DNA of 5,143 bases. Source: DATDCY01 sp031406795 [NCBI: Candidatus Rokuibacteriota bacterium] (GTDB lineage: Bacteria > JAUVQV01). The position numbers and the translations under genes are program-made. This document shows, one piece after another, positions 1 to 5,143 of the stretch. The DNA is taken from contig JANOHV010000114.1 in assembly GCA_031406795.1 (NCBI GenBank), positions 1 to 5,143 on the forward strand, written 5' to 3'. How positions within the stretch are numbered: the stretch's first letter is position 1; each line of letters opens with the position of its first letter. Below the pieces are notes generated by a model. It saw nothing but the letters and a program-made list of their open reading frames with translations, searched no databases and was not told the DNA's origin.

Positions 1-1
1 A

Positions 2-262
2 TCGAGTTTACTTGAAGCGATGGAGGAACAGAACGTGACTGTGGACGGGAAAGTGTATCCGCTTGAGGCTCCATTCTTCGTGATGGCGACTCAGAATCCC
101 GTGGAACTCGAGGGGACGTACCCGTTGCGTCGGCCGCTGTACCTGATCGTCAGGAAGCCGGCGAAACCGGCCGTCAAGGCTTTCGTCGATTTCGCGCTAA
201 GTCCGAAGGGGCAGGACCTGATCAGCTCGTACGGGGCGATCTCCCTCCGAGAGATGAAGTGA
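2..262 (+). CDS. Chimeric partial frame: MoxR-type AAA+ ATPase fragment joined to the C-terminus of a PstS-like substrate-binding protein
   Basis: The frame is already open at base 2, upstream of the first Met at 20. The opening residues read [16 protein letters not shown], which is the MoxR-family signature, so the Met at 20 is internal and not a start. Up to about base 127 the protein continues with the family's [10 protein letters not shown] block, containing the AAA+ sensor-1 Asn (codon 95-97), and EGTYPL. MoxR proteins normally go on with PEAQLDRF. Here the text switches to RRPLYLIV, followed by [16 protein letters not shown] and a short tail ending in a TGA at 260-262. That is the typical C-terminus of PstS-like periplasmic phosphate/oxyanion-binding proteins. 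MoxR ATPases are cytoplasmic and PstS is exported. The fused product lacks Walker A, Walker B, the signal peptide and most of the binding lobes, so it should be non-functional as written. The binding-protein half is probably the native upstream neighbour of the next gene. Confidence 0.8.
119..127 (+). other. Junction between MoxR-like and PstS-like coding sequence
   Basis: The codons for Tyr-Pro-Leu (tac ccg ttg) fit both families. MoxR proteins have GTYPL before PEAQLDRF, and PstS-like proteins often have a YPL or YPI just before RPLYL. The switch of homology therefore lies in or next to these nine bases. Bases 1-120 contain 63 G or C (about 53%), while bases 121-240 contain 76 (about 63%), so composition changes at the same place. 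The exact breakpoint cannot be resolved because of the shared codons. Confidence 0.7.
259..262 (+). promoter_or_regulatory. GTGA stop/start overlap (translational coupling)
   Basis: The TGA stop of the binding-protein frame (260-262) overlaps the GTG start of the first kinase (259-261). Upstream there is only a modest purine run, GAGAGA at 249-254, four bases before the start. Re-initiation by ribosomes finishing the upstream gene is therefore a plausible mode of expression. The GTG is preferred as start because it retains the basic N-terminus and the whole first membrane helix. The first in-frame Met (residue 27) lies inside that helix. Confidence 0.6.
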
Positions 263-2511
263 GAGTCCCGCTGCGGCTGCGTGTTTCCCTGTTCGTCGTC
301 CAGTCCGTTCTGAGCCTGAGCGTCGTCAGCACCCTGATGTTCGCCTGGTTTCTGCGCGACACCGCCGGGAGGGAGATCGTCGCCCGCGGCACGGCGCTTT
401 GTCAATCCCTCGCGCGCGCGGCCGCGGACGGCCTGGCCGCGGAGGATCTCGATCTCATCGACCGTGCGGCCGACATCGTCCGGACCGAGGATGTCCTGTT
501 CGCTCAGGTCTACTCCAGCGTCTGGAGCCCGATCCAGGCCTACCCCTTCAGCGCGATGTACGCGCCGCCCGCCCCCGGTGCGCCGGCGCACTTCGAGAAG
601 GGCGGCGGGCCGTTCTTCGTCAAGGCCGCCGACCGGTACGACTTCTACGCGCCAGTTGTGTTGAAGATCCCGCTCGCGGCCGAGATCACGATCGGGTATG
701 CCCGCCTCGCCCTGTCGACCGCCGCGCTGCGCCATTCGCTGGCCTCGGTCGTGATCGGCAGCCTGGGGATAGCCGCGGCCATCACGCTGATCTTCGTGGC
801 GATCACCCACGTGCTGATCGGCCGCACGGTTCTCGCCCCGCTGATGGACCTGCACCGGGCCGTCGGGCACTTCCGCGACGGGCACGTCGTCGCCATGCCG
901 CCCGCGCGGGCCGACGACGAGATCGCGGACCTCTCCCGCGAGTTCAACGCGATGAGTCTCGCGCTCCTCGACCGGGAAGAGCGGCTTTCGGAGGAGAAGG
1001 AGCGACTCGCCGTGACGCTGCGCAGCATCGGCGACGGCGTCATCGTGACCGACGCGGACGGTCGGGTCTCGCTGCTCAACCGGGTCGCCGAGGATCTCAC
1101 CGGCTGGACGACGCAGGAGGCGGCGGGGAAGCCGTTCTGCGGGGTCTTCCGGATCCACCACGAGCTGACCCGCGAACCCTGCGAGAACATCGTCGGCCGG
1201 GTGATGGCGAGCGGCACGGTCGTCAGCCTCGCCAACCACACGGCGCTGGTTCGCAGGGACGGGCGGGAGATCGTTATCGAGGACGCGGCCGCCCCGATCC
1301 GCGACCGCGAAAGCCAGATCATCGGCGTCGTGCTGGTCTTCCGCGACGTCACCGAAAGACAACGGCTCGAGGCCGAGCTGCGCAAGGCCGAAAAACTTCA
1401 GTCCCTCGGCGTTCTCGCCGGGGGCATCGCCCACGATTTCAACAACCTGCTCACCGGCATTCTCGGCAACATCAGCCTCGCGGGGCTCGCCGTCGGACCC
1501 GCGACGCCGGCGCGCGCGCACCTCGAAGAGGCGGAGGCGGCCGTGCACCGCGCCGCCGAACTGACTAATCAGCTGCTGACTTTCTCCCGGGGCGGGGCGC
1601 CGGTGAAACAGGCCGCGGCGATCGACGAGATTCTCCGGGAGTCGGCGCGCTTCATCCTCTCGGGAACGAACATCAGGCCGGTTTTCGCCGTCGCGGCGGA
1701 CGCCTGGCCGGTCGACGTCGATGCCGGGCAGATGAGCCAGGTCTTCAACAACCTCACGCTCAATGCGATGCAGGCGATGCCGGGGGGCGGGACGATCACC
1801 TACGCCGTGGACAACGTCGCGCTCGGCCGGGGGGAGGAGCCGCTCCTGGCGCCGGGGGACTACGTACGCATCGCGGTCACGGACGAGGGCGCGGGGATCG
1901 CGGCCGCGGACGTCGGCAGGATCTTCGACCCCTACTTCACGACGAAGCGCGAGGGCGCCGGCCTGGGCTTGACCTCCGCCTATTCGGTCGTCAAGAAACA
2001 CGGCGGCCACCTCGCCGTCGCGTCGGCGCCCGGGGAGGGCGCGACTTTCGTGATCCACCTGCCGGCCGCGCGCGGCGCAATTCTGCCGCCGGCGGCGGGG
2101 GAGGAGGCGCTGCGGCGCGGGGAGGGACCGGTCCTCGTCATGGACGACGAACGGACGATCCGCGAGGTCGCCACGCAGATGCTGGAAATGCTCGGGTACG
2201 AGGCGGCAACCGCCGAGAACGGCGCCGAAGCGCTGGCGCTCTACGAACAGGCGCGGTGTCAGGGACGGCCGTTCCGGGCTGTGATTCTGGACCTGACGAT
2301 CCCCGGCGGCCTGGGCGGGAAGGAGACGGTCGGCCGCCTGCTCGCGCTCGACCCCGGGGCGCGGGTCATCGTCTCGAGCGGCTACTCCAACGACCCGGTC
2401 ATGGCCGAGTACCGTTCGCACGGCTTCAGCGGAATGATGGTCAAGCCCTACAACGTGAAGGTGTTCGGCAGGACGCTCGCCGCCGTGCTCGACCAGGAGG
2501 CCGTAGCATGA
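259..2511 (+). CDS. Membrane-bound hybrid sensor histidine kinase (HAMP-PAS-HisKA-HATPase_c-REC)
   Basis: Complete 750-residue sensor kinase that should autophosphorylate on His and pass the phosphate to its own receiver. Order: basic N-terminus and TM1 (~9-31), periplasmic sensor (~32-160), TM2 (~161-186), HAMP (~187-240, with Pro194 and the D220-E221-I222 element), PAS (~245-365, ending in DVTERQ), HisKA (~377-445) with phospho-acceptor His392 in [11 protein letters not shown], and HATPase_c (~488-603). The ATPase domain shows an N box around Asn502, G1 DEGAGI (542-547), F box FDPYFTTK (556-563) and G2 GAGLGL (566-571). The C-terminal receiver (~624-745) has acidic pair Asp629/Asp630, phospho-acceptor Asp678 in DLTIPGG, Ser706/Ser707 and Lys729. 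D393-x-x-N396 after the His fits the phosphatase motif, so both kinase and phosphatase activity are expected. All catalytic residues are present. The periplasmic domain is about 130 residues, possibly a small Cache/PAS-like fold, with ligand unknown. Overlap with the upstream PstS-like frame suggests a binding-protein partner. No HPt or output domain is present. Confidence 0.93.
2495..2500 (+). promoter_or_regulatory. Shine-Dalgarno AGGAGG for the second kinase
   Basis: A perfect AGGAGG lies inside the last codons of the first kinase gene, seven bases before the ATG at 2508. It fixes that ATG as the start and suggests the second kinase can be translated efficiently on its own as well as by coupling. 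Confidence 0.85.
2508..2511 (+). promoter_or_regulatory. ATGA stop/start overlap between the two kinase genes
   Basis: The ATG of the second kinase (2508-2510) overlaps the TGA of the first (2509-2511). This is a classic operon arrangement, so the two genes are almost certainly co-transcribed and translationally coupled. Confidence 0.85.
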
Positions 2512-5143
2512 ACGAACCGGTGCCCTCGCGCCAGTCGGCCGGCCGGATCGTGACGGTGGTCCTCTCCTACGCAGCCTTCGCTTCGCTGTGGATCCTGCTC
2601 TCCGACCGGGCCCTGGAGCTGTTGTTCAGCGACCCCGCACGAATCACGCTGGTGAGCACACTCAAGGGCTGGGCCTTCGTCGTCGTCACCTCCCTGTTGC
2701 TGTACATTCAGATGCGGCGGCTTTCCCGTCCCGCAGCCGCGCCCGGCGCCCCGCTGGAGGGCCTCAAACCGCTGCTGGTGCCGCTGGGGCTTCTGGGCAC
2801 GGCCATCGTCGCGCTGACTGCGGGCGGCATCGCGGAAAGGTTTGATCGTCAGAAACAGATCGATCTCGCCCGGCTCCAGGTCATCGCCGATCTCAAGAGC
2901 CAGCAGCTCGTCGCCTGGCTGGGGGAGCGGTGGGACGACGCACGGGTTCTGCAAACCAGCCCGCTGCTTGCCGACTGCTATTACCGCTGGCGCACAGCCG
3001 GCGACCCCGCCGGCCGCGAGTTGTTGCAGACGCAGCTCGCGGAATTCGGGAAGAGTCACGAACTGGCCGGCACGCAACTGCTCGACGGGCGCGGCGCGGT
3101 CCTGTGGGATTCCCGCAACCCTGCTCCCGTCCTCGACCCTGACCTGCGCGCTGCCGCCCTGCAGGCCGCCGCAGAGCGACGGGTCGGCCGTTTCGGTCCC
3201 TATCGCGACGCGGTCGGGCAGGTGCGCCTGGACTTCATCGCGCCCCTGACTTCGGCAGGCGCACCCCCCGCCATCGTCATCATGAGCGTCGACCCGGCGC
3301 AATTTCTCTACCCCCAGCTCCAGAGCTGGCCGGTGCCCAGCCGCAGCGGCGAGATCGTGCTGATCAGGCGCGAGGGCGAGCAAGTGGTGTTCCTCAATCA
3401 GCTTCGACACCGCCCCGACTCGGCGCTGAAGCTTCGGGTCCCCTTCGCGGCCGAGCAACTGCCGGCATCCAGGATGCTCGACCGCGAGGGCAGGACGGGC
3501 AGCCCGGTGGAGGGCGCGGATTACCGGGGCGTGCCAGTTCTTGGTGTTGTGCGCGCCGTTCCGGGCACCGATTGGTTCCTCGCGGCCAAGCTGGACAAGT
3601 CCGAGTTGTACGCCGATGCCGCCTCCGGCGCCCTCTGGATCGGCCTGGCCGGCCTGATGGCTTTGTGCGGCGCCGCCGCCGGCGCATTTCTGCTGCTGCA
3701 ACGCCGGCAACTCGCCGCAACCCTGCGCGAGCGGGAGGCCCAGGAGGAAAAGCTGCGCGCGCTGCGGCTGCTCGAAGCCATCGCGGAGAGTTCCGACGAC
3801 GCCATCTTCGCCAAGGATCTGCAGGGGCGGTATCTGCTCTTCAACCGGGAAGCGGCGCGGATTACCGGCAAGTCGCCTGAGCAGGTGCTGGGCCGGGACG
3901 ACTACGCGGTCTTCCCTCCCGCCGAGGCGGATCTGCTGATGGCCATCGGGCGGCAGGTTGTGGTCGAAAACCGGAAGGTGACCCACGAGGAGGAGCTGAC
4001 CACCACCGGGGGCACCGGCGTCTTCCTCGCCACCAAGGGGCCGCTGCACGACACCGAGGGCCGGGTCGTCGGCTATTTCGGGATCTCGCGCGACATCACC
4101 GAGCGCAAGCGAACCGAGGAGGCGCTGCGCGAGAACGAAGCCCTGATCAGGGCCGTGCTGGACAATCTCCCGATCGGCGTGGCCGTCAACTCGATCAATC
4201 CCGCGGTCGCCATCTACATGAACGACAACTTCCCGCTCTTCTACCAGACCACCCGGGAGAAGCTCGCCGACCCGGACGCGTTCTGGAGCGCGGTCTACGA
4301 AGACCCGGCGTTCAGGGAGCAGATGAAGAAGCGCGTGCTGGAGGATTGCGCCAGCGGCGACCCGCGCCGGATGCACTGGGTGGACGTGCCGATCACCCGC
4401 AGCAGAGGGCAGACGCATTTCATCACCGCGAGAAACACCCCGGTCCCCGGGAAATCGCTGATGATCTCGACTGTCTGGGACGTCACCGAGCGCAAGCGCG
4501 TGGAGGCGGAGAAGACCCTGCTCGAAGCCCAGTTGCTGCAGGCGCAGAAGATGGAATTGGTGGGGCGGCTGGCCGGCGGCGTGGCTCACGATTTCAACAA
4601 CATGCTCTTCGTGATCATGGGCCACGCGGCCATGGCGCTGGAGCGCATCGGCCCGGAGGAGCCGCTCCACGCCGACCTCGAGGAGATCAGAAAGGCCGCA
4701 CAGCGTTCCGCCGACCTCACGCGGCAGCTGCTGGCCTTCGCGCGGCGACAGACGGTCGCACCGCGGGTGCTCGACCTGAACCAGGTCGTCTCCGGCATGC
4801 TCTCGATGCTGCGGCGGCTGATCGGCGAGGACATCGATCTGGCCTGGCGGCCCGGGGAGGCGTTGTGGCCGGTCAGGATCGACCCGGCCCAGGTCGACCA
4901 GATCCTGGCCAACCTCTGCGTGAATTCCCGCGACGCCATCGGCGGGACGGGCAGCATCACCATCGAGACGCTCAACGTCTCCTTCGACGAGGCAGCTCGT
5001 GTCGACAACCCGGAGATCGTCCCCGGCGATTACGTGCGGCTCAACGTCAGCGACAGCGGCTGCGGCATGAGCCTGGAGGTCCTCTCGCACCTGTTCGAAC
5101 CCTTCTACACCACCAAGGAAGCGGGGCGGGGCACCGGCCTCGG
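2508..5143 (+). CDS. Membrane sensor histidine kinase with Cache-like sensor and two PAS domains, truncated by the window end
   Basis: The frame stays open from ATG 2508 to the window edge: 878 codons plus two bases. Order: N-terminal hydrophobic segments TM1 (~14-38) and TM2 (~52-68), then a third (~88-108), an extracytoplasmic region (~110-370) resembling a double-Cache sensor, and a membrane-anchoring helix (~373-397). PAS1 (~415-533) ends in DITERKR. PAS2 (~540-664) ends in DVTERKR and carries an unusual YMNDNF core. HisKA (~675-745) has phospho-acceptor His694 in GGVAHDFNN, and D695-x-x-N698 fits the phosphatase motif. HATPase_c (from ~786) shows N box Asn802/Asn806, G1 DSGCGM (849-854), F box FEPFYTTK (863-870) and the beginning of the G2 box (GTGL) where the sequence stops. 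Everything needed for catalysis is present as far as can be seen. Kinases of this class often carry a C-terminal receiver, which cannot be judged here. It probably senses a small extracellular ligand via the Cache-like region plus cytoplasmic cues via PAS; the ligands are unknown. Confidence 0.92.
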   Translation, partial: MNEPVPSRQSAGRIVTVVLSYAAFASLWILLSDRALELLFSDPARITLVSTLKGWAFVVVTSLLLYIQMRRLSRPAAAPGAPLEGLKPLLVPLGLLGTAIVALTAGGIAERFDRQKQIDLARLQVIADLKSQQLVAWLGERWDDARVLQTSPLLADCYYRWRTAGDPAGRELLQTQLAEFGKSHELAGTQLLDGRGAVLWDSRNPAPVLDPDLRAAALQAAAERRVGRFGPYRDAVGQVRLDFIAPLTSAGAPPAIVIMSVDPAQFLYPQLQSWPVPSRSGEIVLIRREGEQVVFLNQLRHRPDSALKLRVPFAAEQLPASRMLDREGRTGSPVEGADYRGVPVLGVVRAVPGTDWFLAAKLDKSELYADAASGALWIGLAGLMALCGAAAGAFLLLQRRQLAATLREREAQEEKLRALRLLEAIAESSDDAIFAKDLQGRYLLFNREAARITGKSPEQVLGRDDYAVFPPAEADLLMAIGRQVVVENRKVTHEEELTTTGGTGVFLATKGPLHDTEGRVVGYFGISRDITERKRTEEALRENEALIRAVLDNLPIGVAVNSINPAVAIYMNDNFPLFYQTTREKLADPDAFWSAVYEDPAFREQMKKRVLEDCASGDPRRMHWVDVPITRSRGQTHFITARNTPVPGKSLMISTVWDVTERKRVEAEKTLLEAQLLQAQKMELVGRLAGGVAHDFNNMLFVIMGHAAMALERIGPEEPLHADLEEIRKAAQRSADLTRQLLAFARRQTVAPRVLDLNQVVSGMLSMLRRLIGEDIDLAWRPGEALWPVRIDPAQVDQILANLCVNSRDAIGGTGSITIETLNVSFDEAARVDNPEIVPGDYVRLNVSDSGCGMSLEVLSHLFEPFYTTKEAGRGTGL

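What the first reader, a model, noticed from the sequence alone, without database searches (positions are those of the whole stretch)
1..262. In-frame MoxR / PstS-like chimera at the window edge
Two unrelated proteins, one cytoplasmic ATPase and one exported binding protein, are joined in frame at a shared Tyr-Pro-Leu coding stretch. The upstream half has the MoxR signatures LLEAMEE, VTVDG and ATQNP; the downstream half has the PstS-like RPLYL and [12 protein letters not shown] microhomology join with conserved frame is what a chimeric read, template switch or misassembly would produce, but a real deletion or recombination would look the same. The join makes automatic annotation of this gene misleading.
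Basis: partly seen in the sequence, partly recalled or inferred. Interest (0 to 1): 0.6.

Follow-up and report, generated by a model that had tools for sequence, protein, structure and literature searches.

The report
Chimeric contig end: MoxR joined to PstS
The first 262 bases read as half of one common bacterial protein joined to the tail of another, and the evidence points to a join made during sequencing or assembly rather than a real fused gene.

Summary
Bases 2-262 are one open frame. Residues 1-42 match MoxR (PF07726, profile positions 80-121 of 131); residues 37-79 match the C-terminal end of PstS-type binding proteins (TIGR02136, 246-292 of 295). The halves meet at Tyr-Pro-Leu, bases 119-127.

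The downstream half is native. In 6 of 6 full-length relatives of the next gene (a hybrid histidine kinase) a complete PstS-like gene ends with the same YP(L/F)RRPL tail and a 4-base overlap with the kinase.

The upstream half looks foreign. Its third-position GC is 0.64; none of 1552 same-length windows in the two kinase genes is as low, while the PstS tail (0.84) fits. No fetched relative has the fused order: of 107 distinct frames 80 match MoxR only, 27 PstS only, none both.

With the join at most 127 bases from a window edge that cuts a gene, a chimeric read or misassembly is the best reading (about 0.88). Reads, the source genome and the sequence before base 1 were not available, so a real rearrangement is not excluded.

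The parts
2..127 (+). MoxR (AAA_3) fragment, residues 1-42 of the open frame, cut at the window start and lacking everything after GTYPL
   Evidence: PF07726 positions 80-121 of 131; third-position GC 0.641 for bases 2-118, lower than all 1552 kinase windows
118..128 (+). Join: 9 bases (119-127, Tyr-Pro-Leu) and at most 11 bases compatible with both parent genes
   Evidence: Comparison with MoxR and PstS relatives at the join
119..262 (+). C-terminal 47 residues plus stop of a PstS-like substrate-binding protein gene, native to the contig; its body, roughly 230-270 residues in relatives, is missing
   Evidence: TIGR02136 positions 246-292 of 295; same tail and position in 6 of 6 relatives
259..2511 (+). 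Hybrid histidine kinase (HAMP, PAS, HisKA, HATPase_c, receiver), overlapping the PstS stop by 4 bases; anchors the native side
   Evidence: relatives

Best explanation
The first 118-127 bases are a piece of a moxR gene, probably from a different genome, joined during library preparation, amplification or assembly to the true contig. The true contig starts at about base 119 with the tail of a pstS-like gene that is followed by its partner hybrid histidine kinase. The likely mechanism is template switching or an assembler step at a 9-11 base stretch that both genes share because both encode Tyr-Pro-Leu. Shown: the two families, the native pstS-kinase arrangement in relatives, the alien codon usage of the MoxR half, no fused relative among the frames tested. 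Inferred: that the join arose in vitro or in silico, that the MoxR piece comes from another genome, and that the window start is the contig end.
For: Separate family matches. The kinase at 259-2511 has six full-length relatives at 49-53% identity, all titled Nitrospirae MAGs; in 6 of 6 a PstS-like frame of 274-337 codons, stop to stop, overlaps the kinase start by 4 bases (L006 read directly). Of 21 distinct PstS loci, 18 have the YP.(R/K)RPL tail and all 18 have a kinase match on the same strand just after it. Bases 2-118: GC3 0.641 against kinase windows of mean 0.890, sd 0.057, 0 of 1552 as low; codon score also lower than all 1552; PstS tail GC3 0.841, with 425 of 1542 windows as low or lower. 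In 7 moxR-pstS pairs from 6 relatives the pstS tail exceeds moxR in GC3 by at most 0.03 and is lower in 6 of 7, whereas in the window it exceeds it by 0.20. Fused order: of 107 distinct frames 80 match a full MoxR only, 27 a full PstS only, 0 both; 78 of the 80 MoxR frames hold GT(Y/F)PLP. MoxR at 73-81% in 18 of 46 genomes of one order, where the PstS tail reaches at most 47% (matches in 8 of 46) and the kinase sensor region matches 12 of 46, best 37 bits at 24% identity, ten of the 13 listed matches lying only in its last 100 or so residues or less, towards HAMP.
Against: No reads, coverage, source genome or flanking sequence were available, so nothing rules out a real join in one organism. 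A recently acquired moxR gene would also have foreign codon usage. The MoxR half is short and conserved: plasmid genes of Paracoccus and Rhizobium match at 76%, and G001, which carries the native pstS-kinase pair, has a MoxR at 74%, so its origin cannot be placed. In the order one genome, G629, has a kinase-region match and a PstS-tail match (47%, 23 bits) about 2.5 kb apart on one contig and strand, kinase first, so a distant pair of this kind is not wholly absent there. Codon statistics rest on 39 codons and overlapping windows of only two genes. That the window is a whole contig is inferred from both ends cutting genes.
Confidence: 0.88

Rival explanations
1. A real deletion, inversion or insertion in one strain joined a moxR gene to the pstS tail by recombination at the short shared stretch, leaving a truncated pstS; the fused frame has no function.
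For: The 9-11 base shared stretch would serve end-joining in a cell as well as a template switch. A moxR of 74% identity lies in G001 on the same contig as the native pstS, about 35 kb away.
Against: In G001 that moxR is on the other strand and lies downstream of pstS, so a simple deletion would not give this order. No MoxR match lies anywhere in L001-L006, which hold 3.4-5 kb before the kinase. The codon usage of the halves differs sharply.
Confidence: 0.1
2. A genuine fused gene: a MoxR ATPase with a C-terminal PstS-like segment.
For: One open frame across the join.
Against: The MoxR part stops inside its AAA_3 match and the binding-protein part is only the last 47 residues, so neither is whole in the part seen; by general knowledge of the families one is cytoplasmic and the other exported; no frame tested has both. 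The listed hits that run on past residue 46 are plain MoxR genes.
Confidence: 0.02

Closest known systems
MoxR family AAA+ ATPase (PF07726, AAA_3)
   Same: Residues 1-42 match positions 80-121 of 131, and MoxR relatives have the same run up to GT(Y/F)PL.
   Different: After GTYPL the window has RRPLYL; 78 of 80 distinct MoxR frames hold GT(Y/F)PLP. The two others are L191, which reads GTFELP, and L080, which is cut by its contig end before that place.
PstS-type phosphate-binding protein (TIGR02136; PF12849)
   Same: The last 47 residues match the C-terminal end and the stop lies 4 bases into the kinase gene, as in relatives.
   Different: The body of the protein is absent from the window; the frame before base 119 is MoxR.
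Chimeric contigs or reads in assemblies
   Same: Two unrelated genomic places joined in one contig, here close to an end; described as an assembly fault in PMC3861042 and PMC8862349 (passages seen).
   Different: Read evidence, which those passages use for detection, was not available here.

Membership tests
MoxR family ATPase | AAA_3 domain match above the curated cut-off | tested here: met
   58.2 bits against cut-off 27, but only positions 80-121 of 131
MoxR family ATPase | Continuation GT(Y/F)PLP after the match | tested here: not met
   Window reads GTYPLRRPL; 78 of 80 distinct MoxR frames hold GT(Y/F)PLP
MoxR family ATPase | Walker A and the N-terminal half of the ATPase (feature recalled) | not testable with these tools
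   They would lie before base 1 of the window
PstS-type binding protein | C-terminal end of TIGR02136 / PBP_like_2 | tested here: met
   TIGR02136 246-292 of 295, E 2.1e-8, but 33.7 bits against a whole-protein cut-off of 206.6; PF12849 28.5 against 27 for the whole frame, 24.8 for the PstS half alone
PstS-type binding protein | Whole binding-protein body in the same frame | tested here: not met
   The frame before base 119 is MoxR; of the relatives, L001 and L004 were scanned and match PBP_like_2 over most of the protein
Chimeric contig | Segments of different compositional origin | tested here: met
   GC3 0.641 against 0.841, 0.905 and 0.877; 0 of 1552 kinase windows as low
Chimeric contig | No or few reads or read pairs across the join | not testable with these tools
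   No raw reads; no whole genome held

The most novel reading that the evidence does not exclude
A real, recent rearrangement in a GC-rich relative of the Nitrospirae MAGs placed a horizontally acquired moxR fragment in frame with the tail of the pstS-like gene, so that the kinase downstream is now expressed without its binding-protein partner.
Probability: 0.06. Interest if true: 0.25.

Novelty: not a real feature. Interest (0 to 1): 0.07.

Why it matters
As a finding it mainly guards against a false annotation: an automatic pipeline could name this frame MoxR or PstS, or report a fusion. The useful by-product is that the native neighbour is a recurrent pair, a PstS-like binding-protein gene followed, mostly with a 4-base overlap, by a hybrid histidine kinase.

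Tried and rejected
A natural fusion was tested with the 86-residue frame in 7, 295 and 297 genomes (the match lists were cut by the tool, so unlisted matches were not seen). The six listed matches that run from the MoxR end past residue 46 were fetched: five are MoxR genes aligned on through a gap of 3 to 6 residues, one (L143) ends at residue 42 in my own alignment. Listed matches from the PstS end that start at residues 18-32 were also checked: L078, L082 and L096 match PstS only, and L193, L194 and L195 match PstS only. In the plasmid collection (263 records with a match, 10 listed) the one record covered over 80% or more (Halorussus, L191) and the first listed (Persicobacter, L192) are annotated MoxR family ATPase and match MoxR only; the other listed records and the 253 unlisted ones were not opened. 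Viral contigs: no exact match to a 30-base junction and no relative of the kinase or of the frame. Placing the MoxR half in a lineage failed, since 42 conserved residues match several groups at 74-81%. None of the repeats shown lies at the join (20 of 35 direct families and 25 of 27 inverted pairs were shown). Paper searches: two gave nothing, one listed a single paper, not opened, one listed seven, of which passages of two were seen. Counted twice: six PstS genes appear as L001-L006 and L066-L071, so 27 frames are 21 distinct; and one MoxR gene appears as L121 and L146. The counts are by distinct protein.

Full report
Observation. Residues 1-42 match the MoxR domain AAA_3 at positions 80-121 of 131 (58.2 bits); the rest matches the C-terminal end of PstS-type binding proteins, TIGR02136 positions 246-292 of 295 and PF12849 positions 225-266 of 267. 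No family covers the whole frame. The PF12849 match begins at residue 29 and loses 3.7 bits when the MoxR half is left out; whole PstS relatives align weakly over the same residues, so this is read as chance extension. The halves meet at Tyr-Pro-Leu, bases 119-127; with one more compatible base on each side the shared stretch is at most 11 bases.

Which half is native. The gene that follows, at 259-2511, is a hybrid histidine kinase with HAMP, PAS, HisKA, HATPase_c and receiver domains. A scan of a collection with one genome per species gave 65 loci, six of them full-length relatives at 49-53% identity, all titled Nitrospirae MAGs. In five of these the ORF list shows a PstS-like gene of 274-315 codons that overlaps the kinase start by 4 bases. 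In the sixth, L006, my ORF filter had dropped it; the frame of 333 codons, stop to stop, was seen and the 4-base overlap was read directly. Their tails read (K/R)YP(L/F)RRPL and end much as the window does. Two of these PstS-like proteins were scanned and match PBP_like_2 over most of their length. Among 21 distinct PstS loci, 18 have the tail and all 18 are followed by a kinase match on the same strand, at 27-53% identity. In 15 of 18 the kinase match begins 4 bases before the end of the PstS frame, counting L083, whose match starts at residue 3 and was extrapolated, and L006; in L085, L088 and L098 it begins 176, 21 and 7 bases after the end. These loci come and from the best-scoring matches; they are not a random sample.

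The other half looks foreign. Third-position GC is 0.641 in bases 2-118, 0.841 in the PstS tail, 0.905 and 0.877 in the two kinase genes. None of 1552 windows of 39 codons in the kinases is as low as the MoxR half, nor has as poor a codon score; the PstS tail falls within the range (425 of 1542 windows as low or lower in GC3, 104 of 1542 in codon score). The windows overlap, so this is no formal probability. As a control, moxR is not usually the GC-poor partner: in 7 pairs from 6 relatives the difference pstS minus moxR runs from -0.19 to +0.03, against +0.20 in the window. Nor is the segment GC-poor within moxR genes: segment minus whole frame has mean 0.023, sd 0.056, minimum -0.114, n 74 of 78 frames.

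No fused relative. The 86-residue query gave matches in 7 of 7, 229 of 295 and 208 of 297 genomes; the match lists of the last two were cut. Nearly all listed matches cover either the MoxR end or the PstS end. The six that run from the MoxR end past residue 46 are MoxR genes; the six seen that run back from the PstS end to residues 18-32 (L078, L082, L096, L193, L194, L195) are PstS only. Of 87 frames tested first, 60 matched MoxR only, 27 PstS only and none both. With all loci, counted by distinct protein, 107 frames gave 80 MoxR, 27 PstS and none both, and no locus held a match to each half. Of the 80 MoxR frames 78 hold GT(Y/F)PLP; L191 reads GTFELP and L080 is cut before that place. Viral contigs hold neither the exact junction nor, by the tool's peptide patterns, a relative.

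Origin of the MoxR half. It is 73-81% identical to MoxR in 18 of 46 genomes of one order. There the PstS tail matches in 8 of 46 at no more than 47% and 33 bits. The kinase sensor region matches in 12 of 46: the best is 37 bits at 24% over residues 17-234, one more spans residues 4-239 at 23%, and the others, at 27-35%, cover only the last part of the query. Against a clean split, G629 has a match of each kind about 2.5 kb apart on one contig, kinase region first. In the order of G001, which has the native pair, 67 of 101 genomes match the MoxR half, the best at 74% and the next at 71%. This fits two different source genomes but is no proof, because 42 conserved residues also match Paracoccus and Rhizobium plasmid genes at 76% and a Desulfobulbus MAG at 74%.

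Mechanism. The most likely cause is a chimeric read or assembly join at the short stretch that both genes share. The position close to the window start, where a gene is cut, fits a contig end extended by a rare chimeric read; that the window is the whole contig is an inference. The assembly literature describes such contigs and uses read evidence to detect them (PMC3861042, PMC8862349; passages seen). A rearrangement in a cell at the same stretch would look alike, and only reads or source DNA can decide. In G001 the nearest moxR lies on the same contig about 35 kb away, but on the other strand and downstream of pstS, so a simple deletion would not produce the join there.

Verdict.

Noticed in passing
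window 119-2511; L001-L006, L083-L086, L088, L091, L092, L096, L098, L100, L104, L107: A PstS-like binding-protein gene directly followed by a kinase related to the window's hybrid histidine kinase, in 15 of 18 loci with a 4-base overlap. It may be a binding protein that serves the kinase as sensor. Neighbours were not tested; by eye L002 has an ORF at 2470-4053, minus strand, whose end looks like an ABC ATPase.
   Followed up: partly
window 2508-5143: A second sensor kinase (PAS, HisKA, HATPase_c, weak dCache match) whose ATG overlaps the end of the first by 4 bases; it is cut by the window end at its GTGLG motif.
   Followed up: no
window 91-2421 and 2448-5141, minus strand: Long antisense open frames of 776 and 897 codons opposite the kinase genes, probably shadows of GC-rich coding sequence.
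   Followed up: no
G629 contig C138, 20517-23487 (L174, L180): A match to the kinase sensor region and a match to the PstS tail about 2.5 kb apart on one strand, kinase first, in the order whose MoxR genes resemble the MoxR half.
   Followed up: no
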